Part shown: one piece after another, positions 776 to 49,024 of the stretch
Layout of the letters: each line of letters starts with the position of its first letter
Numbering within the stretch: the first letter of the stretch is position 1
Position numbers and translations under genes: made by a program
Assembly (NCBI GenBank): GCA_022843745.1
Contig: JALHNB010000050.1
Location: 1-52,118, forward strand
Origin: Anaerolineae bacterium
GTDB lineage: Bacteria; Chloroflexota; Anaerolineae; Aggregatilineales; Phototrophicaceae
DNA length: 52,118 bases
Direction: 5' to 3'
Notes under the pieces: model-generated
Told to the model about the DNA's origin: nothing
Databases searched by the model: none
What the model saw: the letters and a program-made list of their open reading frames with translations, nothing else

Positions 776-3586
776 ATGACCGATCTGTTCATCTCCTACT
801 CGCGCAAAGACATCGACTTCGCCCGACTGCTCACCAGCGAACTCAAGCGTCACGGACAGGGCGCGTGGATCGACTGGCAGGACATCCCCGGCGGCGCGGA
901 CTGGCTGGCAGAGATTCACCAGAGCATCGAAAACGCCGACGCGATTGTGTTCATCGTCACGCAGCACTCGCTCACGTCGGAAATCTGCAATCATGAGTTG
1001 GAATACGCCCGCCGCTATAACAAGCGCATTTTGCCTGTCATTCGCCAGCGCATCGAGGGTGATATTCAATTTATCGTTAAAGGGATGTGGTCAGAACAGC
1101 CCTGGCAAACCCTTGCCCTCGAAAATTGGGCAATATTGGGCAAATTCAATTGGCTCTTTTTTGACACCGATTTTGAAGCCGCACTCAAAAACTTATTGGA
1201 TGCGCTTGCCGCCGACCCCAACCACCTACGTCAGCACACCCGCCTGCTGCAACTCGCGCTCGATTGGGAGCGCAACGACCACGCCGAAAGTTACCTGCTC
1301 GTCAGTGCAGGAATAGATAATGGCGAAGCATGGCTGAACCTTGCCGATGTCAAAAATCCACCACCCACTGATCTTCATTACAACTTTGTCACCGCCAGCC
1401 GCATGGCCGATGATCGCCGCCGTGACCAGTTACGAGGTATTGAAAATCGCATCGAGTCTCTAAACCTCGCCTCGTCAGCCATCGAAGTTTTGAACGAGAA
1501 TGGCAACGTCGAAACTGCCGCAATTCTGGCTATCCGCGCTCTCAAGACTGCGAATACACTTCAAGCCAGCGCCGCGCTGGAACTGGCTTTAGATCGCCTC
1601 CACACCCGCCAAATCTTTAGGCATCCTGATTACGTAACTGGCGTGACATTTAGCCCGGATGCTCGATTTATTTTAACCGCCAGCAATGACGATTCTGCCC
1701 GTATTTGGGATGCAGAGGATGGCAGCGAACTTCGACAGTTCATGGGGCATACCAGCACGGTGAATACAGCCGTTTTCAGCTCAAATGGTCAATATGCCCT
1801 GACCGCCAGTTATGATGGCACTGCGCGCCTCTGGGACGTTGAAAGCGGCGATGAGATTCAGCGTTTCACAGATCATCGCGATGCAGTCATATCCGCTATC
1901 TTCAGTCCCGATGGCCGTTATATCCTCATAGCCCACGACACACCTTTTGAACATATGGATAACCTCGTGCGGCTTTGGGATGCCGAGACAGGAAAAGAAA
2001 TTCGAAAGTTTATCGGGCATAAGGACGATGTCACCAGCATCGCCTTCAGCCCAGATGGAAAATTCATCGTTACTGCCAGCAGCGGCTCTTATAACACAAA
2101 TGATTATGCAGTGCGGTTATGGGACGTGGATACAGGGCAAGAAATTCGCCAATTCAAGGGACATACCGACGCGGTAACCTGTGTCGTTTTCAGCTACAGC
2201 GGACGAAGCATTATCACCGCTAGCGCTGACCAAACGGCGCGCTTATGGGATATGAGTACCGGACAGGAAATTCGACAGTTTATTGGGCACACAAATACCC
2301 TTACAGGCGTTGCCATTAGTCCTGATGGGCAGTTTATCCTTACATCAAGCTATGACAACACAGCACGAATCTGGGAATCGACAACTGGGCGCGAAATCCG
2401 CCAATTAAGCGGACATACCGATGCTGTGACGGGCTGCGCCTTCAGCCTAGATGGGCATTTTGCCGTGACCGCCAGTGATGACCATACTGTCCGAATGTGG
2501 AATTTGGCTTACGAATCTCGTACGTTCAGTGAGCATAAATATGAGGTACAGAGTGCAGAATTCAGCCCCGATGGCCTTCGTGTAATAACAGCAGATGACG
2601 ATGCTACCCGAATCTGGGAGGCTTCAACCCGCAATGAAGTCAAAGAGATCGATGGGGGATACGGGGAGCATAACACAGCCGCAGTTAGCCCGGATGGGCG
2701 ATATATCCTGATGTCTAGCAGCAGATCTTATATGGAGGGAGTAAAAACAATAGTATGGGATACCGCAACTAACTCTGATATTCATCGTTTTGATGCACGT
2801 ACCCTCCAGCTATCTCATGCAAATTTTAGCCCCAATGGTCGTTTTATCCTAACAACGTCGAGTTATTCTATCTCCTATTTTCAACTCTCAACTCATAGAC
2901 ATACTATTTACGGAAACGACAATAACATACCCCAAATATGGGATATTCAAACAGGAAAAGAAATTCAAGAACTTGTAGGGCACACCTCTACTGTAACCAG
3001 TGCGGGCTTTAGTGCAGAGGGGATTTTCATTGTCACCGCAAGTAACGATAATACCGCTCGTCTGTGGGAAGCCCAGACAGGGCGTGAAGTTCGGCAATTC
3101 AAAGGTCACACCCTCCCACTGAACCATGCCAGCTTTAGTCGCGATAGTCAATATCTTGTCACCGCGAGTTGGGATCGCACTGCAAAGTTATGGGATGTTG
3201 CTTCGGGACGCGAAATTCGTCAACTTGCGGGGCATACCGCGCCATTGACAACGGCACATTTTAGCCCTGATGGGCGATATGTTCTCACGACAAGTCACGA
3301 CTCGACCATGCGCCTATGGAATATAAAAACCGGTGAGGAGGTTCGCCGTTTTGCGGGACACACGGGCGCAATTCTCAGTGCCGCATTCAGTCCAGATGGG
3401 CATCATATCGTTACCGCAAGCTCTGACGGTACTGCCCGCATTTGGGACACCGACTATCGTGATTTCATCGACTACGCCTGCACGCGCGTCTTCCGCGACC
3501 TTACCGACGAGGAACGCCAGCGCTACGGCATCCCCGCCGACTCCCCCACTTGCGACCATTTCGGCCCAAAATCACAGCGAGAATAA
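776..3586 (+). CDS. TIR domain - WD40 repeat protein (14 blades)
   Basis: 936 aa. Residues 1 to about 140 are a TIR domain of the bacterial TIR_2 type (DLFISYSRKD start, WIDWQDIPGG, then SEICNHELEYA, where a catalytic Glu of TIR NADases would sit). Residues of about 150-275 are a helical linker with the PPPTDLHYNFVTASR motif seen in TIR/caspase-WD40 proteins. From about 280 on there are 14 WD40 units (GHT..V...FSPDG..I.TAS.D.TAR.WD), enough for two seven-bladed propellers; units 9 and 10 are degenerate. The tail (RVFRDLTDEERQRYGI) is a common end for such proteins. No signal peptide. An ATG with CTGGAG upstream sets the start. Family knowledge suggests an NAD-cleaving or signalling effector with a propeller sensor; the immune role is inference. 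DNA of the middle repeats is more AT-rich than the ends. Confidence 0.9.
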   Translation: MTDLFISYSRKDIDFARLLTSELKRHGQGAWIDWQDIPGGADWLAEIHQSIENADAIVFIVTQHSLTSEICNHELEYARRYNKRILPVIRQRIEGDIQFIVKGMWSEQPWQTLALENWAILGKFNWLFFDTDFEAALKNLLDALAADPNHLRQHTRLLQLALDWERNDHAESYLLVSAGIDNGEAWLNLADVKNPPPTDLHYNFVTASRMADDRRRDQLRGIENRIESLNLASSAIEVLNENGNVETAAILAIRALKTANTLQASAALELALDRLHTRQIFRHPDYVTGVTFSPDARFILTASNDDSARIWDAEDGSELRQFMGHTSTVNTAVFSSNGQYALTASYDGTARLWDVESGDEIQRFTDHRDAVISAIFSPDGRYILIAHDTPFEHMDNLVRLWDAETGKEIRKFIGHKDDVTSIAFSPDGKFIVTASSGSYNTNDYAVRLWDVDTGQEIRQFKGHTDAVTCVVFSYSGRSIITASADQTARLWDMSTGQEIRQFIGHTNTLTGVAISPDGQFILTSSYDNTARIWESTTGREIRQLSGHTDAVTGCAFSLDGHFAVTASDDHTVRMWNLAYESRTFSEHKYEVQSAEFSPDGLRVITADDDATRIWEASTRNEVKEIDGGYGEHNTAAVSPDGRYILMSSSRSYMEGVKTIVWDTATNSDIHRFDARTLQLSHANFSPNGRFILTTSSYSISYFQLSTHRHTIYGNDNNIPQIWDIQTGKEIQELVGHTSTVTSAGFSAEGIFIVTASNDNTARLWEAQTGREVRQFKGHTLPLNHASFSRDSQYLVTASWDRTAKLWDVASGREIRQLAGHTAPLTTAHFSPDGRYVLTTSHDSTMRLWNIKTGEEVRRFAGHTGAILSAAFSPDGHHIVTASSDGTARIWDTDYRDFIDYACTRVFRDLTDEERQRYGIPADSPTCDHFGPKSQRE

Positions 3587-3713
3587 CCGCCGCGACGACC
3601 TCATTCCCCGAAAAACTTGACCAATCGCGAAACTCGTTGGAAAATAACTGCGTTCAGACATTCCAGGATCAGTATTCCATCACAGGATCAGATAGTCCAG
3701 GAGATGAAAGAAT

Positions 3714-4083: not shown

Positions 4084-4107
4084 GGGTGCACGGCTGTGCG
4101 CCCCTAC
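4084..4107. repeat. Family B palindromic repeat copy
   Basis: Imperfect palindrome GGGTGCACGGCTGTGCGCCC followed by CTAC: the CCCCTAC flank of family B with a self-complementary core. It lies between the convergent small hypothetical gene and the FtsX-type permease, followed by low-complexity CACTCAGCACT-like DNA up to the permease stop. Confidence 0.6.
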
Positions 4108-4174: not shown

Positions 4175-6709
4175 TTACTCATACTGCAATGCGCGGATAA
4201 TATCGAGCTTCGCGGCACTCCGCGCAGGCAAAATACTCGCGAACAGCGCCAGCACCACGCCCAGAATCACCGCCGCGACGATGCCCACCAGCGGGAACGT
4301 GTATGGCACAGACCAGCCGACAATCGAAAACGCCTGGATAAACCCGTAGCTCATCGCCACGCCCGCCAGCACACCCATCGCCGCGCCGAAAACGCCGAGC
4401 AGCAGCGCCTCGCCCATCACCATGCGCCGCACCTGCCCGCGACTGCCGCCCACCGCCCGAATAACGCCGATTTCGCGCGTCCGTTCGAGGATATTGATCG
4501 TCAGCGTGTTCAGCAGGCCGAGCGCCGCCGGGATCAGAATCAGCAGCCCCAGCACGTAGAACATGCTCATCGCGCCGGTGGTCAGGTTCATCAATTCCTC
4601 GCGATATTCGCCCGTTAACTGCGGCGTGAACTGCGGGTAATCCGTCAGAATCGCCTCAATTTCGCCCATCGCCGCCGTTTTGTCCGCGTCCGGCTTCAGG
4701 TCGATCATCAGCATGATGTCCTCGGATTTATGAAAATCCGCTGCCAGATTCGCCTGCGAGATGAAAACCACGGCGATTTTGAAGGTCAGCAGGTCATTCG
4801 CCACCGCGCTGATGCGGTATGTCTGCGGCCCGTCCGCCGTCTCCATCACAAATTCATCACCGACATTTTTCTTCAAACTCTGCATCGCCAGCGACGTGAT
4901 AATGGCGTTCCGCCCGCTGCCCAGCGCCGCGAATGCTTCGTCCGCCGTGCCTGCGCTGAAATCGAACGATGCAACATTGGGGTATTCCGCCGGGTCAATG
5001 CCCATAATTTGCAGGCTTTGCCCATCCCCGATGCCCTTTGCATAGCGTAACGTGCCAATGCTCTCAACGTCCGGCAGCGCCCGCACCTGATTGGCGAGAT
5101 TTTCGTCCGCGCCAATCACATTGTCATACACAGCAATCGACTGCGGCAGCAGAATCACATCACTGGAAAAATTTCGGTTCGCCAGATTCGTTACCAGATC
5201 GCCCAGCGCTGTCACCAATGCCGCCATCAGCACCAGGGTCGCCAGCCCGATCATCAGCGTACTGGCCGTGATCGCGGCCCGCCCCGGCTGCCGCACCAGA
5301 TTCCCACGCGCCAGATCACCCTCCCGCGCGAACCATAGTGTCAGCAGCGGGCTGAACAGACGCGCCATCGGGATCACCAACCCCGGCGCGGCGATCACCA
5401 TGCCCACCAGGAACAGCACCGCCCCGCCAACTGCACCCCGGCTGCCCACCAACAGCAGCACAACCGAAAGCACCATGATGCCCACGCCCACGACCAAACT
5501 CCAACGCGCCGCGCGATCAACGTTGGTGTTACTGGCAGGGCGCAGCGCTTCCAGCGGCGACGTTTGTCCGGCCTTCCGCGCAGGCCAATAGCCCGACAGC
5601 AGCGCCGTCAACAGCCCCAGCACCACCGCCACCAACACCGCCGAAGCGTTCAATTGCAGGTGCAGGTTGCCGCGATTCAGATAAGTTCCCCAATACTGAT
5701 TCACGGCATTGACACCCGCCCACGCCATTGAAAAGCCGAGAATCAGCCCGATCAGCGTCCCCAAAAACCCCTGAACCAGGCTCTCGATGACGATCATGGA
5801 GGTGATCTGCCGCCGTGTCGCGCCCATCGCCCGCAGCATCCCCAGGTCGCGCTTGCGTTCGATAATCACGGTTCGGAACGTGTTAAAGATCAGGAACGCG
5901 CCCAAAAACAGCGCCAACAGGCCAAACAGGTCGAACATGGCGAGGCCAATTTCCATCGCTGCGAACGCACTCGTCGCGTCGCTGCTGGCGCTCATCTGGT
6001 AGCCGCTGCCCAGCGCACTCTGGATTTCCGCGCTCACCGCTTCCCGATCCGCGCCCGGATTAACCGCTACTTCGACGGTGTTAATCAGACCCGGCTGGTT
6101 GAGCGCCGCCTGCGCATCGGCCAGCGTCACATAAAATTGCGGAGTCGCGCCGCCCTGTTCTGCCAGAATGCCGGAAACGGTGTAAATTTTCAGCCCGCCC
6201 GCCGTAATCAGCGGAAAGGTCGTCCCCACTTTGAGATCGGGCGCGAGTTCCGCCAGACCTGCTGGAATCAACACCTTGCCCGTGTCCCCCGGCTGCAAAA
6301 ATTCCCCTTCGCTCATCACAAACTGGCGCACGTCCTGAATAGTCGCCGCGTCAAGTCCGATCAGTTCGATCTGCGCCACTTCGCTGCTGATTATTGACGG
6401 GATAGTGAACTGCCGCCGCAGAATCCCGCTGACAGCCTTCACATTCTGCACACCCGCGATTTGCTCCAATACGGCGTTCGGCTCAAACGATTCGCCAGAT
6501 GTGCTGGTGACGCTCGTATCCGCGCCCGTCACCGAGGTCATCGTCTGTTGAAACGTGCTGTATGCGCTCGGCAGCACCAGGTTAATCGCAAAAATCAGCG
6601 CCACGCCGAACACAATCGCCAGCGTCGTCAGCGCCGTCCGCAGCTTGCGCCCATTCAGATAGCGCAAACCCATCAATGTCATTTGCCAAACGCCTGCTCC
6701 TGCGTTCAT
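4175..6709 (-). CDS. ABC transporter permease, FtsX/MacB-like, double FtsX domain
   Basis: 844 aa from the ATG at 6709, chosen because AGAAGGT lies about 8 bases upstream; an upstream ATG would add a basic 14-residue tail. Topology: a first membrane helix (ALTTLAIVFGVALIFAIN), a large extracytoplasmic MacB-type domain, a three-helix FtsX block (LFLGAFLIFNTFRTVIIERK, RDLGMLRAMGATRRQI), further helices, then a second half repeating this plan (second external domain, NTLTINILERTREIGVIRAV, C-terminal helices, PARSAAKLDIIRALQYE). Two FtsX blocks in one chain is the architecture of LolC/E- or MacB-related permeases that work with a LolD-type ATPase, here encoded just upstream on the same strand. 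Likely exports or extracts lipids, peptides or an antimicrobial; the substrate is unknown. Confidence 0.92.
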   Translation of the reverse strand: MNAGAGVWQMTLMGLRYLNGRKLRTALTTLAIVFGVALIFAINLVLPSAYSTFQQTMTSVTGADTSVTSTSGESFEPNAVLEQIAGVQNVKAVSGILRRQFTIPSIISSEVAQIELIGLDAATIQDVRQFVMSEGEFLQPGDTGKVLIPAGLAELAPDLKVGTTFPLITAGGLKIYTVSGILAEQGGATPQFYVTLADAQAALNQPGLINTVEVAVNPGADREAVSAEIQSALGSGYQMSASSDATSAFAAMEIGLAMFDLFGLLALFLGAFLIFNTFRTVIIERKRDLGMLRAMGATRRQITSMIVIESLVQGFLGTLIGLILGFSMAWAGVNAVNQYWGTYLNRGNLHLQLNASAVLVAVVLGLLTALLSGYWPARKAGQTSPLEALRPASNTNVDRAARWSLVVGVGIMVLSVVLLLVGSRGAVGGAVLFLVGMVIAAPGLVIPMARLFSPLLTLWFAREGDLARGNLVRQPGRAAITASTLMIGLATLVLMAALVTALGDLVTNLANRNFSSDVILLPQSIAVYDNVIGADENLANQVRALPDVESIGTLRYAKGIGDGQSLQIMGIDPAEYPNVASFDFSAGTADEAFAALGSGRNAIITSLAMQSLKKNVGDEFVMETADGPQTYRISAVANDLLTFKIAVVFISQANLAADFHKSEDIMLMIDLKPDADKTAAMGEIEAILTDYPQFTPQLTGEYREELMNLTTGAMSMFYVLGLLILIPAALGLLNTLTINILERTREIGVIRAVGGSRGQVRRMVMGEALLLGVFGAAMGVLAGVAMSYGFIQAFSIVGWSVPYTFPLVGIVAAVILGVVLALFASILPARSAAKLDIIRALQYE

Positions 6710-6801
6710 GTTTTTTACCTTCTTACTAGACCGATTTTTCGGCCACATCAACCGTTGGGCATCTATGTCACGCCCAAAATTTTCACCTAATCGACATCTT
6801 C

Positions 6802-7014
6802 GTAGGGATGCACAGCCGTGCGCCCTGCAATCTCATACAGTCGGCATCTTCGTAGGGGTTTGATACATCAAACCCTTCTCGTTGTCGGTCTGCCTGGGCA
6901 TGTTGATGCGATGAAGCAAAATAATCAGGTAACGTTTGCGTAGGGGCGCAATATATTGCGCCCTTTGTTTTCCCGTTTATGTCTTCATACGGGCGGGTCT
7001 GAGACCCGCCCCTA
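6802..7014. repeat. Cluster of family B palindromes in the permease-ATPase gap
   Basis: The 366-bp gap between permease start and ATPase stop holds no gene but four palindromes: 6802-6828 (GTAGGGATGCACAGCCGTGC...), 6852-6877 (GTAGGGGTTTGATACATCAA...), 6940-6963 (GTAGGGGCGCAATATATTGC...) and 6991-7014 (GGGCGGGTCTGAGACCCGCC...). The outer GTAGGGG/CCCCTAC is kept while the inner arms change yet remain self-complementary. They may form hairpins in the mRNA of the PadR-ATPase-permease set and affect downstream expression (inference). Confidence 0.8.
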
Positions 7015-7075: not shown

Positions 7076-7819
7076 CTACCCGCTGATCGCCACCCGGCCC
7101 AACTGTTCGCGAATCTGATCGGCCTTGCCCTGCCCCTTGAGGCGATTTTCGTCCACAATCGTGCCATCCTTGAGAAACACGATCCGGTCAGCATACGCCG
7201 CCACACGCGGATCATGCGTCACCAGAATCAGCGTCTGATGCCACTGATCGACGGCCTTGCGCAGCATTTGCACGACTTCATCGCTGGATTTCGAATCGAG
7301 GTTGCCCGTCGGTTCGTCCGCCAGCACCACAGCCGGTTTCGTCACCAGCGCCCGCGCCAGTGCCGCCCGCTGCTGCTGCCCGCCGGAAAGTTCAGAAGGC
7401 CGATGGGTCGCGCGTTCCGCCATCCCCACCTGCGCCAGCGACGCATTCGCCCGTTGCAGCGCTTCGGGTCGCGGAACACCGTCCAGAATCAGCGGCATCG
7501 CCACGTTTTCCTGCGCCGTCAACACCGGAATCAGATTGAAAAACTGGAACACGAAGCCCAGCGATTCCCGCCGCAGCGCCGAAAGCGCGTCGTCATTCAT
7601 GACGCTGATGTCCTTGTCGCGTATCCACACTTTGCCGCTGCTGGGCGTGTCCAGCCCGCCGAGCAGATACAGCAGTGTGCTTTTACCGGAGCCGCTTGGC
7701 CCCATAATCGCAACAAATTCGCCCTCCTCCACGTCCAGATTCACCTTATCCAGCGCGTAAATCGGCTGGCTGGCCTCCCCGTACAGTTTCGTAAGCTGTT
7801 CCGTCCGTACAATCGTCAT
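7076..7819 (-). CDS. ABC transporter ATP-binding protein, LolD/MacB type
   Basis: 247-aa cytoplasmic ATPase. It has Walker [18 protein letters not shown]-loop [16 protein letters not shown] signature [15 protein letters not shown], Walker [14 protein letters not shown] and H-loop [11 protein letters not shown]; the length and the FQFFNLIP motif are typical of the LolD/MacB/FtsE-like subfamily that energises FtsX-type permeases. It lies between the PadR regulator (upstream) and the permease (downstream) on the same strand, so it is very likely the ATPase of that transporter. The C-terminal extension ([20 protein letters not shown]) is short and charged. Confidence 0.95.
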
Positions 7820-7887: not shown

Positions 7888-8000
7888 CATGATTTCCGTA
7901 GGGGCGACGCATATCCACCCGCATGATTTCCGTAGGGGCGACGCATATCCACCCGCATGATTTCCGTAGGGGCGGCTCGCGAGCCGCCCCTACAATACGT
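7888..8000. repeat. 34-bp tandem repeat built from family B half-elements
   Basis: Units starting CATGATTTCCGTAGGGGCG begin at 7888, 7922 and 7956 (exact 34-bp period). The first two units continue as ACGCATATCCACCCG; the third changes into a full palindrome GGGGCGGCTCGCGAGCCGCC followed by CCTACAA. It lies between the PadR stop and the ATPase start, so it would be in the transcript if the genes are cotranscribed. Confidence 0.85.
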
Positions 8001-9775: not shown

Positions 9776-9851
9776 GTAGGGGCGCAATAATGTGGTTTAA
9801 CAAAATGACACGGGTAAAGATTTAGAAGGGCACGATACATCGTGCCCCTAC
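9776..9851. repeat. Family B copies between the PhyH paralogs
   Basis: A half-element GTAGGGGCGCAATAATGTGG at 9776 and a full palindrome GGGCACGATACATCGTGCCC followed by CTAC at 9828-9851. They separate the duplicated PhyH genes and may have arrived with, or after, the duplication. Confidence 0.7.
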
Positions 9852-25697: not shown

Positions 25698-26026
25698 ATT
25701 TTTTACCTTCTATTTTGTGTCAAATCGTCCAGCGCAACTATAGCACCGTCGCGCCGGAAATGCACATGCGTTCTAAGATTTGGCGTGGCAGAGGAGGCAT
25801 ATCTTAAATGGCGATGTTCACAACACGACATAGGAGGTATTTTGGCGTAGGGGCATGATAATGTTTTTCCATCATCAAATACGGGGTACGCTGTAGGGTC
25901 ATGATATATCCTGCCCTGGCAAACCGACCACGAAAAGGGTTTGATGTATCAAACCCCTACAAGGCGTTTATCCGTCTTTATTTTTTAAAGATCATGATTG
26001 CGCCCCTACAGACCCATGTATGGTCA
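25698..26026. other. Intergenic, 329 bp with family B repeats
   Basis: No gene. Family B elements: half-copy GTAGGGGCATGATAATG near 25850, GTAGGGTCATGATATATCCT at 25892-25917, palindrome AGGGTTTGATGTATCAAACC followed by CCTAC at 25936-25960, and a CGCCCCTACA end near 26000. The 25936 copy has nearly the same core as 6852-6877. Confidence 0.75.
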
Positions 26027-29927: not shown

Positions 29928-32492
29928 ATGCCCGCTATCTTCCTCAGCCACGCGACCAAGAACGATGCCGAGGTTACACAAATCCATGACGCGCTCGAAA
30001 AATTGACAGGTGTTGAAATCTGGGTCGATCACAAGGACATCCGCAACGGCGAAAATTGGGACAAAACGATTGAAAGAGCCGTCAGCGACTGTCCCTATAT
30101 GCTGCTGATAATTTCGCGCGACTCCATGAAAAGCGACGAGGTACACGCGGAATGGCGGGCAGCGATAACCTACGGACACGCGCTACTACTCGCGATCATT
30201 GACGACATCCCGATTGAGGACATCCCTCAGCGTTTACGCCTGCACCAGTGGGTCAACCTGAGCACAGATTGGGACGCTGGGATCGCCAAAATTGCCGCGT
30301 CGATTAGGGGTGAAAAAACCGACTCGGCGCCAGCTTTCACGCCTTGGCCGATCATCACCCGTAGCCCGATCTCGCGCAAATTGACCGGGATCGCCATGCA
30401 AGGGCGCGATGATGACTTAAACGCCGTACAAAGATTGGTCAAACTCGGCCCAACACAGATCATAGGCATCGGCGGACTGGGGAAATCACGCCTTGCCGTC
30501 GAAATAATGTTGCGTTTAGACGATGTGGGCGGAGCAGTATGGCATGTGTGCAGCGATGTTTCACGCCCTGATGAAGTGATCGAACTTTTGCGCGACCATT
30601 TTGGCCTCGATGTGACGGCTGAGCGCACGATCGTGCTAAATCAATTGCGTAGGCATCGCCGCCTGATAGTTTTCGATAATGCCGAATCAGTGCCCGAAGG
30701 CCACCCGCACCGCAAAATTTATGCCGAATTAATCGAAGCCCTGATCGCACACGGTTCGTTCGTGCTACTCACCACCCGCGTCATATGGAACGAGATCAGT
30801 CCACCGCGCCGCAAATATCAGCCTTCGCAGTTGACGCTGGAGGCTGCGCGTCAGGTGGCGATTGAAATGCTCACAGCATTCGGTCTAGAAGGATTAGAAG
30901 CGAGTGTGCTGGAAATTGCCAAAGCTGCGCGGCTGCATCCCAAATTAATCGAGTGGGCTGTGGGACAAGTCGAGAACAGAGGTGTTACGAGAGTTTTGGC
31001 TGACCTAGATGACTTGAAAAGCAAGAATGTACAAGAAGCACTGGACGAGATGATCCATAAGACACTGCGCCAGATGGAAGCCAAGGAAGCAGGGGAGGCG
31101 GCAGTCTGGGCGCTTCGTCGTTTGAATGCCTGTCGTGGTGGGTTTACCTATGACGCAGCAAAAGCGCTCTGCATTTTATCTCCTTTCTCTGATGACACCG
31201 TAGGGATGGGTCTGAGACCTACCCTAACAACACCCATCACCAATACCGACGATCTCGACACTGCCCTCCACCTACTCCAAACCTACCGCTTCGTCACCTT
31301 CGCCACGCACGTCGAACGCTATGATGTCGATCCTCTAGTACAGGAGATCATCGGCGCGGAGGGTTTTGACGCGCATTATGATTACTATGGAACACTAGCT
31401 TGGCAGCATCGTGAAAAGCAGGATTATGCTCATCTGGATATCGAATCAGCCAATCTGGAAGTTGCCTTCGAGCGTATGTTCGACGTGGATGCCTTCGAGC
31501 AAGTATTTGCGCTTTATACTGCTTGTTCCGATTTTCTTTCCAACCGAAGACGCGCCGAACAGCGCAAAGAGTGGCTAGAACGCGTTGCACCAAAATTACT
31601 TATACATCCTGATAAATATATAGTTGGAGCTGTTCATGATGCTTTAGGCAGCCTTTACGCACAACGCCCTACCGGTGAACTCAAGAAAAACTTACAGTTT
31701 GCTATTTACAACTATCAACAAGCCTTAATCTATGCTGACCTTCATAAAAATCCACAAAGTTATGCCGTTACTCAACTTAATTTGGGAAGTGCTTGGCGAC
31801 AGTTATCAGAAATAGAAAACGCTACAGGCAACCTACATCAAGCGATTGAAGCCTATGAGGAAGCATTAATCTACTTCACATCTCAGATTGCCCCTCAAAC
31901 TTATGCTAAAATCCAATATGGTTTAGGGAATGTTTATCGTCACTTGTCAGCTTTTGAAGATCGTGCCGATAACCTTCACCGAGCCATAACTGCCTGTAAA
32001 CATGCCTTAGACTACCTTACACCTGATGTCAATCCCCTGGATTATGCTGCGACACAAAACAACCTTGGGGCTACCTATGCTGACCTAGCAAATGTCGAAG
32101 AACGCCTAGATAATTTGCTTCGCTCTGTTGAAGCCTACGAGAAAGCTCTAAGATATTACACATCTGAAGCCGCCCCATTAGAATATGCTAAGGCACAGCT
32201 TAATCTGGGAAGTGCGTATTTGGGTTTATCAACAATCCAGAACGATAATATTAACTTGCGCCATGGGATTAACTCCTTCGCGAAGGCCTTGATCTACTTT
32301 ATCCCTGAAAAAAATCCATTATTTTATGCTAGGACGCAACACAACTTGGGCATAGCTCATAAACTCTCGAACACTCATGACTTGGCGATTCTGTGCTGGC
32401 GCGAGGCCGAGCATTATTATCGACAGACAGGCTATATCGAAGACGCAGATAAAATGCTGCGCTTAATTTCCGAGGTGGGGGAGTCATCATAA
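29928..32492 (+). CDS. TIR - NB-ARC - TPR protein (bacterial NLR-like)
   Basis: 854 aa from the ATG at 29928, with AAAAGGA 5 bases upstream; an open frame extends further upstream without a good site. Residues 1-135: TIR (PAIFLSHATKNDAEVTQIHD; WVDHKDIRNGENW; Glu in DEVHAEWRAA). About 155-450: STAND/NB-ARC ATPase with P-loop IIGIGGLGKSRLAVEI, Walker B RRLIVFDNAESV, sensor FVLLTTRVIW and a winged-helix region. About 560-854: TPR-like helical repeats (NLHQAIEAYEEALIYFTSQ, YAKIQYGLGNVYRHLS). Residues of about 425-434 come from a degenerate family B repeat. The TPR half is markedly more AT-rich than the N-terminal half. Family knowledge predicts a ligand-triggered oligomeric NADase-like defence protein; the trigger is unknown. 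Confidence 0.88.
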   Translation: MPAIFLSHATKNDAEVTQIHDALEKLTGVEIWVDHKDIRNGENWDKTIERAVSDCPYMLLIISRDSMKSDEVHAEWRAAITYGHALLLAIIDDIPIEDIPQRLRLHQWVNLSTDWDAGIAKIAASIRGEKTDSAPAFTPWPIITRSPISRKLTGIAMQGRDDDLNAVQRLVKLGPTQIIGIGGLGKSRLAVEIMLRLDDVGGAVWHVCSDVSRPDEVIELLRDHFGLDVTAERTIVLNQLRRHRRLIVFDNAESVPEGHPHRKIYAELIEALIAHGSFVLLTTRVIWNEISPPRRKYQPSQLTLEAARQVAIEMLTAFGLEGLEASVLEIAKAARLHPKLIEWAVGQVENRGVTRVLADLDDLKSKNVQEALDEMIHKTLRQMEAKEAGEAAVWALRRLNACRGGFTYDAAKALCILSPFSDDTVGMGLRPTLTTPITNTDDLDTALHLLQTYRFVTFATHVERYDVDPLVQEIIGAEGFDAHYDYYGTLAWQHREKQDYAHLDIESANLEVAFERMFDVDAFEQVFALYTACSDFLSNRRRAEQRKEWLERVAPKLLIHPDKYIVGAVHDALGSLYAQRPTGELKKNLQFAIYNYQQALIYADLHKNPQSYAVTQLNLGSAWRQLSEIENATGNLHQAIEAYEEALIYFTSQIAPQTYAKIQYGLGNVYRHLSAFEDRADNLHRAITACKHALDYLTPDVNPLDYAATQNNLGATYADLANVEERLDNLLRSVEAYEKALRYYTSEAAPLEYAKAQLNLGSAYLGLSTIQNDNINLRHGINSFAKALIYFIPEKNPLFYARTQHNLGIAHKLSNTHDLAILCWREAEHYYRQTGYIEDADKMLRLISEVGESS
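31200..31228. repeat. Family B repeat inside the TIR-NB-ARC gene (in frame)
   Basis: GTAGGGATGGGTCTGAGACC followed by TACCCTAAC. Matches the free copies with GGGCGGGTCTGAGACCCGCC at 6991 and 40998 but has point changes in both arms. The frame stays open and encodes VGMGLRPTLT. Confidence 0.75.
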
Positions 32493-40654: not shown

Positions 40655-41221
40655 AAACGGCCTCTGATTACGGTAATGGTTCAATTTTTATATGATTATA
40701 TTCGTGTTCTTTTGCCTCATAACCTGTTTGGAAATTCACTCAACCTCACCCCCCAACCGCTGCGCGTCTCCAATGCGTTGGAGAGGGGGAGTTAAAACAG
40801 GTTTTCTGAGGCAGATGCCGATGTAAAAACGAATATTCAAACAGGTTCTCAATACCCCCTACATACAACCCCTGCCGCGCCAAAATCGCTCAAAAATTCT
40901 CATGATAAGCGATTTCCTGCTGTGCATTATGCAAGCATTATCGCGAGATTTACGACAATTTATGAGGGACATTTTGGGAAGTCCATGTTTTTGCGCAGGG
41001 CGGGTCTGAGACCCGCCCCTACAGTCCACATTTGGCGGGCATCTCTGAAAGTGTCATAGACTGAAACCCTCTATAGGCGCAAATGGCTCAATAAGGTAAG
41101 CGGGCTGCGTTTTCCATGTCATTTCTTGCCCGATACCACCCCTATTTCTTGCCCTATTCGCCCACATCGTGTTAAAACATGGCTGAATCCACCCGTTTTA
41201 ATGTTCAAGGACTCAAAACTC
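40655..41221. other. Intergenic, 567 bp with one family A and one family B repeat
   Basis: No gene recognised. Holds a family A copy at 40742-40797 (CCTCACCCCCCAACCGCTGC ... GGAGAGGGGGAG) flanked by inverted arms (TTGCCTCATAACCTGTTT at 40712 and AAACAGGTTTTCTGAGGCAG at 40795) and a family B palindrome GGGCGGGTCTGAGACCCGCC followed by CCTAC at 40998-41022. Confidence 0.75.
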
Positions 41222-49000: not shown

Positions 49001-49024
49001 AGGGCGCACGCCATGCGCCCCTAC
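49001..49024. repeat. Family B palindrome
   Basis: AGGGCGCACGCCATGCGCCC followed by CTAC, between the terminase and the convergent TolB-like gene; a second CGCCCCTACA end lies at about 49048. Confidence 0.75.

What the first reader, a model, noticed from the sequence alone, without database searches (positions are those of the whole stretch)
6802..7014. Family B: fixed ends, changing but self-complementary core
Across copies the outer GTAGGGG/CCCCTAC is constant, while the inner arms differ: GTTTGATACATCAAAC, CGCAATATATTGCG, CGGGTCTGAGACCCG, CACGATACATCGTG, CGGCTCGCGAGCCG. Both arms change together, so pairing is preserved. This compensatory pattern implies selection for a hairpin or copying by a hairpin-templated process, not random repeats.
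Basis: seen in the sequence. Interest (0 to 1): 0.75.

Follow-up and report, generated by a model that had tools for sequence, protein, structure and literature searches.

The report
GTAG-tagged REP hairpins with cognate transposases
These short DNA hairpins are REP elements, tiny repeats thought to be copied around bacterial genomes by a matching single-strand transposase, and here the transposase gene carries the same kind of hairpin inside its own coding sequence; the kind is already known, and it explains why the ends stay fixed while both arms of the core change together.

Summary
Copies there have one GTAG 'foot' plus a hairpin; the window's only double-footed copy is 7966-7993. Genome-wide the pattern is strong: 135 GTAGGGG-N4..34-CCCCTAC sites against 5 in the backward control. 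With only the ends fixed, cores pair far above shuffles (56 of 60 cells, mean 25.5). Pfam Y1_Tnp misses the relevant RAYTs. A divergent RAYT family, found through nearby REPs, occurs in 84 of 150 class genomes, this one included. Its genes carry such hairpins nearby and inside the ORF, between HUH and tyrosine motifs: 20 of 27 and 13 of 24 genes in two sets, 0 of 9 in other RAYTs. This is the published TnpA-REP subclass 2.4 REPtron with 'double foot' REPs (PMC6006769). Best explanation: non-autonomous ssDNA elements recognised through GTAG, stem base and pairing; the core may change if it still pairs. Movement itself is inferred, and RAYT-linked arms account for only 28 of 98 dispersed copies sampled here. 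New member of a known kind.

The parts
6802..6825 (+). Single-foot REP, partly decayed: GTAG + GGATGCACAGCCGTGCGCCC (one arm changed)
   Evidence: Sequence; same right arm and loop as the GGGCGCACAGCCGTGCGCCC core of this genome. Not found by the hairpin finder.
6852..6875 (+). Single-foot REP: GTAG + GGGTTTGATACATCAAACCC
   Evidence: second copy at 25937-25960(-).
6940..6963 (+). Single-foot REP: GTAG + GGGCGCAATATATTGCGCCC
   Evidence: the same core occurs double-footed on contig C9.
6991..7015 (-). Single-foot REP: GTAG + GGGCGGGTCTCAGACCCGCCC
   Evidence: same core at 40998-41022(-).
7898..7920 (+). Decayed REP, first copy of a 34-bp tandem duplication
   Evidence: fold only -4.8 kcal/mol, RNA parameters, 30 nt.
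7932..7954 (+). Decayed REP, second copy of the tandem duplication
7966..7993 (.). Double-foot REP GTAGGGGCGGCTCGCGAGCCGCCCCTAC, the only one in the window
   Evidence: same core inside the RAYT fragment on contig C15 (L328) and on contig C6.
9828..9851 (-). Single-foot REP: GTAG + GGGCACGATGTATCGTGCCC
25937..25960 (-). Single-foot REP: GTAG + GGGTTTGATACATCAAACCC
40998..41022 (-). Single-foot REP: GTAG + GGGCGGGTCTCAGACCCGCCC
49002..49024 (-). Single-foot REP: GTAG + GGGCGCATGGCGTGCGCCC, the same body as a REP beside the C49 RAYT
   Evidence: L327 position 4963.
4084..4107 (-). Probable decayed REP of the GGGCGCAC type (GTAGGGGCGCACAGCCGTGCACCC)
   Evidence: fold -12.9; not found by the hairpin finder.
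31200..31224 (+). Probable decayed REP (GTAGGGATGGGTCTGAGACCTACCC)
   Evidence: fold -14.3; not found by the hairpin finder.
4175..6751 (-). Neighbour gene: MacB/FtsX-type ABC permease, not part of the element
   Evidence: Pfam PF02687 and PF12704.
7076..7819 (-). Neighbour gene: ABC-transporter ATPase; REPs lie on both sides of it
   Evidence: Pfam PF00005.

Best explanation
The repeats are GTAG-tagged REP elements, non-autonomous single-strand DNA elements of a TnpA-REP (RAYT) subclass 2.4 REPtron. Shown: a fixed GTAG foot plus a G-C stem base; a core that varies but stays self-complementary; single-foot and double-foot forms; intergenic location; and a homologous HUH/tyrosine transposase gene in this genome and its relatives, with REPs beside it and one in frame inside it. 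Inferred: the transposase folds the ssDNA hairpin, reads GTAG and the stem base, requires an intact stem, cuts beside it and copies or moves it. Broken stems then stop spreading while any matched pair of arms can spread. Each RAYT lineage drags along its own core, so one genome that has hosted several lineages holds many cores with the same ends.
For: Element. Location: 16 of 95 sites inside ORFs against 84 expected; of 74 intergenic sites 33 convergent, where convergent gaps hold 18% of intergenic bases. RAYT: alignment A1 found in 84 of 150 class genomes, own genome included. A1 presence goes with REP presence (68/84 against 33/66, Fisher p 9e-5; 10 or more copies 26/84 against 5/66, p 4e-4). 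REP in the HUH-Tyr linker in 20 of 27 RAYTs (query A1, one row of which has a linker REP) and 13 of 24 (phylum, query L344 without a REP; the sets share one locus); 0 of 9 for NF047646 top hits. Linker and flank REPs of one locus share a stem arm in 13 of 15 loci, shuffled mean 1.6, 0 of 2000. Own genome: the C49 RAYT has REPs at L327 4963, 5271 (internal, VGAHGCAP), 5604 and 5669; arms found at the two RAYT loci account for 28 of 98 REPs elsewhere. Over nine genomes, the mean matched fraction is 0.335 against 0.101 permuted, 0 of 20000. Residues that PMC6006769 discusses for GTAG recognition in E. coli (W, Q, E, H, R) stand at the same spacing; profile hit to PDB 4er8 TnpArep, E 7.6e-6.
Against: No movement was observed and no empty site was found; no same-genus genome was listed. 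In 4 of 9 genomes (G040, G058, G141, G080) the RAYT-linked arms I had explain 1/13, 0/10, 0/9 and 1/7 REPs, though not all RAYTs of those genomes were read. In the own genome 70 of 98 entries have no RAYT found with their arm. Five genomes with 10 or more copies have no A1 hit: G026 44, G034 12, G051 71, G054 16, G125 11; of these G051 and G054 have an NF047646 hit, and at least 42 of 74 sites in G051 ride in a MITE. PF01797 shows no association (p 0.17). Association tests are not corrected for shared ancestry. RAYT identity and linker-arm distance are only weakly related (rho -0.19, 6 of 1000). The enzymology known for other REPtrons (PMC8266576, passages) fits only in part: the E. coli enzyme needs a bulge in the stem, and in S. 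maltophilia changes in the lowest three stem positions even improved cleavage while one loop base was critical, whereas here the stem base is the constant part.
Confidence: 0.85

Rival explanations
1. Arms stay matched mainly by hairpin-templated copying: during replication the nascent strand switches to the other arm and rewrites it (quasipalindrome correction), so cores change in pairs without selection. Not exclusive with REP transposition.
For: In relative G051 a MITE carries the palindrome in fixed flanks. Among 47 copies matched, one (C460) has both arms changed in concert, and another copy, C46, has +1 base in both arms. Template switching is argued in print to create and maintain stems (PMC8794818, abstract and start of the introduction). 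RAYT pair L320/L323 has a matched A-T/G-C swap at the homologous linker position, which either process could give.
Against: Five of the six deviant copies among the 47 have a one-arm change only, and L384 shows a one-arm difference from L380 at 94% N-terminal DNA identity. It does not explain the fixed GTAG foot or the match of cores to RAYTs.
Confidence: 0.3
2. The hairpins are kept for an RNA role at 3' ends of transcripts (termination, mRNA stability, RNase barrier).
For: Bias to convergent and tandem gaps and away from divergent ones (33, 35 and 6 of 74); single-foot copies are somewhat T-rich just after the hairpin (31 and 34 of 68 at the first two positions).
Against: Double-foot copies are followed by CTAC, not a T run; a pure terminator role predicts no constant GTAG foot and no copies inside the transposase genes. 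The same bias is reported for REPs generally (PMC3733652). No terminator scan was run.
Confidence: 0.15
3. They are operators for a dimeric double-strand DNA-binding protein.
For: Perfect symmetry and constant outer half-sites in double-foot copies.
Against: Most sites are single-footed (30 double-foot sites among 95), few lie in divergent gaps (6 of 74), and the centre varies; does not explain RAYT linkage.
Confidence: 0.03

Closest known systems
TnpA-REP (RAYT) subclass 2.4 REPtrons, Quentin et al. 2018 (PMC6006769; abstract, outline, sections 12 and 13, and passages seen)
   Different: That paper names Cyanobacteria, Bacteroidetes and various phyla; here an Anaerolineae-related genome and class-wide counts. 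Added here: tests of linker/flank core identity and of match to the genome's dispersed copies. Motif letters differ slightly (NHLH; YIxxNP).
GTAG REP superfamily, Di Nocera et al. 2013 (PMC3733652; abstract, start of the text, sections 5 and 16, part of 17, and passages seen)
   Same: GTAG terminus, subfamilies with complementary stem changes, intergenic 3' bias; GTAG repeats reported in Chloroflexi, and GTAG-23 in T. roseum (that this is the Chloroflexi case is my inference).
   Different: There GTAG is an unpaired motif at one end; here about a third of the sites also carry CTAC. The family sequences (Figure 1) were not held, so identity with GTAG-23 was not tested.
REPINs, Bertels and Rainey 2011 (PMC3116915; passages seen)
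   Same: REP-derived mobile units with compensatory changes and a RAYT.
   Different: REPINs are inverted REP pairs with a spacer; the elements here are mostly single hairpins, though inverted pairs occur inside some RAYT genes (L300, L313, L315, L332).

Membership tests
GTAG REP element | Tetranucleotide GTAG at the 5' foot of a stem-loop | tested here: met
   128 of 480 GTAGGG start a hairpin; control hexamers 0 of 967, 1 of 1012, 3 of 287, 6 of 504.
GTAG REP element | High copy, mainly extragenic, downstream of genes | tested here: met
   95 sites in 1.65 Mb, 16 inside ORFs against 84 expected; convergent excess.
TnpA-REP subclass 2.4 REPtron | Stem base of three consecutive G-C pairs | tested here: met
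   GGG..CCC stem bases; in part imposed by the search motif GTAGGG.
TnpA-REP subclass 2.4 REPtron | Double-foot REPs (GTAG..CTAC) | tested here: met
   118 in own genome, control 0; 60 of 128 strand-wise hairpins followed by CTAC.
TnpA-REP subclass 2.4 REPtron | Cognate HUH-Y1 transposase gene flanked by the same REPs | tested here: met
   Own C49 RAYT (L327) with REPs; 13 of 15 loci that have both share a linker and flank arm.
TnpA-REP subclass 2.4 REPtron | REP inserted in frame between HuH and Y motifs | tested here: met
   20 of 27 and 13 of 24 RAYT ORFs; own C49 gene included.
TnpA-REP subclass 2.4 REPtron | Protein motifs NH[IFV]H, WQ, YIxNNP | tested here: inconclusive
   Own protein NHLH, WQ, YIQVNP; relatives NHVH, NHIH, NHLH or NHFH and YIxxNP: close, not letter-perfect.
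TnpA-REP subclass 2.4 REPtron | Residues discussed for GTAG recognition: W, Q, E, H, R | tested here: met
   Own protein W147, Q148, E153, H154, R157 at the E. coli spacing; in 13 proteins W, Q, R invariant, E in 12 (D in L329), H in 9 (R in 4). The paper calls the role of W unclear.
TnpA-REP subclass 2.4 REPtron | Phylogenetic placement in the published tree | not tested
TnpA-REP subclass 2.4 REPtron | ssDNA cleavage or transfer of the REP | not testable with these tools
   Needs biochemistry.
NCBIfam NF047646 REP_Tyr_transpos | Score over curated cut-off 80 bits | tested here: not met
   Own C49 protein 60.1 bits, C15 fragment 38.7, L169 63.4, L176 67.6: homologous, below cut-off.
IS200/IS605 insertion sequence | TnpA scoring over the IS200 cut-off (NF033573, 55 bits) | tested here: not met
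   Own C49 protein 16.9 bits.

The most novel reading that the evidence does not exclude
The REP embedded in frame in the transposase linker is the lineage's own identity tag or master copy: the gene carries the substrate its protein recognises, so element and enzyme travel and diverge together, and new cores arise there by arm-templated rewriting that keeps the hairpin and the reading frame (GTA|GGG|GC.) before being spread through the genome.
Probability: 0.15. Interest if true: 0.7.

Novelty: new member of a known kind. Interest (0 to 1): 0.4.

Why it matters
It explains in one stroke a pattern that looks like puzzling compensatory evolution, extends the subclass 2.4 REPtron to a class of bacteria in whose sampled genomes it is common, and shows that the usual Pfam model misses relevant transposases. 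The many natural core/RAYT pairs are a ready set for asking which part of a REP its transposase reads, and whether cores change by selection or by hairpin-templated copying.

Tried and rejected
Pfam PF01797 as RAYT detector: 110 of 150 genomes hit, no association with repeat number; G110 with 108 copies and G124 with 93 had no hit. Rejected as the wrong model; two of its weaker hits (L169, E 3.9e-4; L176, E 1.1e-8) had GTAGGGGC hairpins close by and led to the right family. Three other PF01797 loci (L157, L158, L161) also had a GTAGGG hairpin in their stretch and were not followed.

Own IS200-type TnpA on contig C101: no GTAG hairpin in its 3.3-kb locus, 79.6 bits to the IS200 model; rejected as the cognate enzyme.

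Orthologous-site or empty-site test with the same-genus genomes G051, G124 and G185: at least 42 of 74 sites in G051 turned out to be inside a MITE, so no insertion boundary could be read. No empty MITE copy was found with gap lengths 5-35. No same-genus genome for the window was listed among 40 relatives.

Intrinsic terminator and dsDNA operator readings: see rivals. Text search for the sequence itself returned 995 papers, 40 listed, none of which looked relevant from the listing except perhaps a cyanobacterial one (PMC9030849), which I did not open. A paper search on template switching was used only for the rival.

First genome-level cognate test (second part) held hand-typed lists with errors (two extra G122 entries, one missing G080 entry, G174 miscounted); it was redone, and only one search is used. 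G017 was dropped from that test before counting because its listing was truncated (5 of 25 sites listed), and G106 because none of its sites was listed. REPs within about 300 bp of the RAYT loci read were left out of the genome lists. In one search, loci without an ORF that fits my two motif patterns were left out: 3 of 30, 21 of 30 and 6 of 30 in the A1, NF047646 and L344 sets. Some RAYT loci were picked by hand for reading; they are used for examples and for the RAYT-linked arms, not for the census.

Full report
Source. The window is positions 1-52118 of contig C50 of an 8.0-Mb, 117-contig genome, 98.6% complete. The one named relative found, by the permease next to the repeats (67% identical), is an 'Anaerolineae bacterium' MAG.

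What is in the window. Between a MacB/FtsX-type permease gene (4175-6751, minus) and an ABC ATPase gene (7076-7819, minus) lie four GTAG-hairpins: 6802(+), 6852(+), 6940(+) and 7015(-). Upstream of the ATPase gene lie two decayed copies in a 34-bp tandem duplication (7898, 7932) and one perfect double-ended copy (7966-7993). Further copies are at 9851(-), 25960(-), 41022(-) and 49024(-), with probable decayed ones at 4107(-) and 31200(+).

Anatomy across the genome. In 1.65 Mb (80 stretches plus the window), 128 of 480 GTAGGG hexamers start a hairpin, against 0 of 967, 1 of 1012, 3 of 287 and 6 of 504 for control hexamers. These are 95 sites. Sixty of the 128 strand-wise hits are followed by CTAC ('double foot', 30 sites); 68 are single-footed, some with a near-CTAC end. 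The hairpin body is 20 or 21 nt in 113 of 128. Thirty-six different 8-base arms occur among 98 entries. In this sample some cores are seen only single-footed (e.g. GGGCGCACAGCCGTGCGCCC, 6 copies) and others only double-footed (e.g. GGGCGAGGCATGCCTCGCCC, 4). The base just upstream of GTAG is T or C in 117 of 128.

Covariation. Using only patterns with fixed ends and free centres, to avoid selecting hairpins: own genome N12 type, 15 distinct cores, 56 of 60 cells paired (1000 shuffles: mean 25.5, maximum 39); N13 type, 7 cores, 22 of 28 (mean 13.7, maximum 22, so not beyond the best shuffle).

Location. Sixteen of 95 sites fall in greedy ORFs where 84 are expected; the 74 intergenic sites that could be classed are 33 convergent, 35 tandem and 6 divergent, while convergent gaps are 18% and divergent gaps 25% of intergenic bases. 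This is the published habit of REPs (PMC3733652, abstract and discussion passages).

Distribution. GTAGGGGC-N10..15-GCCCCTAC occurs in 101 of 150 genomes of the class; the backward-read control is 0 or 1 in each. A relative of the same family (G167) has 236. The genomes whose sites were listed differ in their sets of cores, with some cores shared.

The transposase. PF01797 hits 110 of 150 genomes without significant relation to repeat number. But two of its weaker hits, L169 (G174) and L176 (G055), had GTAGGGGC hairpins close by. Their proteins resemble NCBIfam REP_Tyr_transpos below its cut-off (63.4 and 67.6 of 80 bits). Their alignment A1 finds 84 of 150 class genomes, including this one and genomes without a PF01797 hit (G110, G124, G046, G080, G106, G122, G015). 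A1 presence goes with repeats: at least one copy 68/84 against 33/66 (Fisher p 9e-5); five or more 31/84 against 9/66 (p 0.0015); ten or more 26/84 against 5/66 (p 4e-4); genomes are not independent. Genomes with ten or more copies but no A1 hit: G026, G034, G051, G054, G125; G051 and G054 have an NF047646 hit.

REPs in the transposase genes. Of 27 A1-found genes with both motifs (30 best loci), 20 have a GTAG-hairpin between the HUH and tyrosine motifs. Because one row of A1 itself has such an insert, I repeated the search at phylum level with a protein that has none (L344): 13 of 24, 5 more with a flanking REP only, 6 with none. The best NF047646 hits, other RAYT groups, gave 0 of 9 (3, 6 and 21 of 30 loci without my motif patterns were left out; the first two sets share one locus, L311/L389). 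The hairpin has GTAG on the coding strand in frame GTA|GGG|GC. (V-G-A..) in 18 of those 20 and 7 of those 13. Linker and flank REPs share an arm in 13 of 15 loci that have both (shuffled mean 1.6; 0 of 2000). In this genome the C49 gene (L327 5013-5570, minus) has VGAHGCAP from an internal REP and REPs on both sides; the C15 locus (L328) is a C-terminal fragment with an internal CGGCTCGCGAGCCG (the core of window 7966-7993) and a flanking CGAGGCATGCCTCG. Arms found at these two loci account for 28 of 98 dispersed entries. Over nine genomes the mean matched fraction is 0.335 against 0.101 permuted (0 of 20000), but the fit is uneven: G174 16/21, G046 9/12, G122 10/15, G055 4/12, own 28/98, G080 1/7, G040 1/13, G058 0/10, G141 0/9. 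I had not read every RAYT of the last genomes. Similar RAYTs tend only weakly to share linker arms (33 RAYTs, rho -0.19, 6 of 1000 permutations).

Identity of the enzyme. A 13-protein alignment keeps M-P-x-H-x-H, W147, Q148, R157 and Y168-I-x-x-N-P. E153 is kept in 12 of 13 and H154 in 9 (R in 4). W, Q, E, H and R stand at the spacing of the E. coli residues that PMC6006769 discusses for GTAG recognition; it calls the role of W unclear and notes H-to-R replacement in two other subclasses. The profile hits PDB 4er8 'TnpArep' at E 7.6e-6.

Known kind. [quoted passage not shown] The sequence features I tested fit, except exact letters of two protein motifs. So this is a member of a known kind, in a phylum that the paper's distribution figure lists only in a pooled category.

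How it works. Reported for other REPtrons (PMC8266576, passages): GTAG is essential or important for cleavage; in the S. maltophilia system a mid-stem mismatch affected or almost eliminated cleavage. That fits a core that may vary if it pairs. The same passages fit less well elsewhere: changes in the three lowest stem positions improved cleavage there, one loop base was critical, and the E. coli enzyme needs a bulge. Subclass 2.4 enzymes were not among those whose results I saw. Movement of the present elements is inferred. Double-foot copies offer a GTAG hairpin on either strand; PMC6006769 suggests that they could arise by central deletion of an inverted pair. Inverted pairs do occur inside some RAYT genes (L300, L313, L315; L332).

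Templating. In relative G051 the palindrome rides inside a roughly 200-bp MITE. Of 47 matched copies, 41 have an intact palindrome, five have a one-arm change and one (C460) has both arms changed in concert. Another copy, C46, has +1 in both arms. This hints that arms can be rewritten together without transposase selection, but it is two events. At the homologous linker position, L380 and L384 (94% N-terminal DNA identity) differ by a one-arm change and the central base, and L320 and L323 (78%) by a matched A-T/G-C swap and the central base.

Papers. PMC3733652: abstract, start of the text, sections 5, 16, part of 17, passages. PMC6006769: abstract, outline, sections 12 and 13, passages. PMC8266576 and PMC3116915: passages. 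PMC8794818: abstract and start of the introduction. PMC3686654 and PMC2817692: search listing only. Searches for prior reports; I make no claim that any part is absent from print.

Noticed in passing
relative G051, loci L128, L132, L134 and others: A MITE of about 200 bp (end sequence CAGGGCTGTTGCAAAGT) carries the double-foot palindrome at a fixed place; 47 copies matched its flanks in one genome, 41 of them with an intact palindrome.
   Followed up: partly
own genome C1:189201-189533 (L006); also G179, G072, G168, G172 and others: A weak Y1_Tnp domain match inside very long open frames (about 700-1300 aa), seen repeatedly in the class.
   Followed up: no
own genome C101 (L026), about 2300-3700: IS200-type TnpA gene with GCCGGATGGCTTTTAGCCTCCGGC-type hairpins on both sides and other small inverted repeats with varying cores (AGCCTGCT..AGCAGGCT).
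   Followed up: no
L301 at 1783 and L302 at 1342: A REP nested inside another REP within a RAYT open frame, which may mark an insertion point.
   Followed up: no
L155, L161, L174: Other Y1/RAYT loci have GTAG-hairpins of different stems (GTAGCC.., GTAGCATTG.., GTAGCCGCGCC..) close by, so other REP families seem to exist in the class.
   Followed up: no
IMG/VR contigs, L177-L256: At least 120 viral-contig stretches hold the fixed-end 28-base pattern (scan stopped at its limit); whether they are prophage or host flanks was not checked.
   Followed up: no
own genome sample: Other dispersed near-perfect palindromes: CCCCTTTCTCCATGCAATGGGGAAAGGGG-like copies and AATTGTTCTGGNCCAGAACAATT.
   Followed up: no
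window 7898-7965: 34-bp tandem duplication of a decayed REP plus flank ahead of the double-foot copy.
   Followed up: partly
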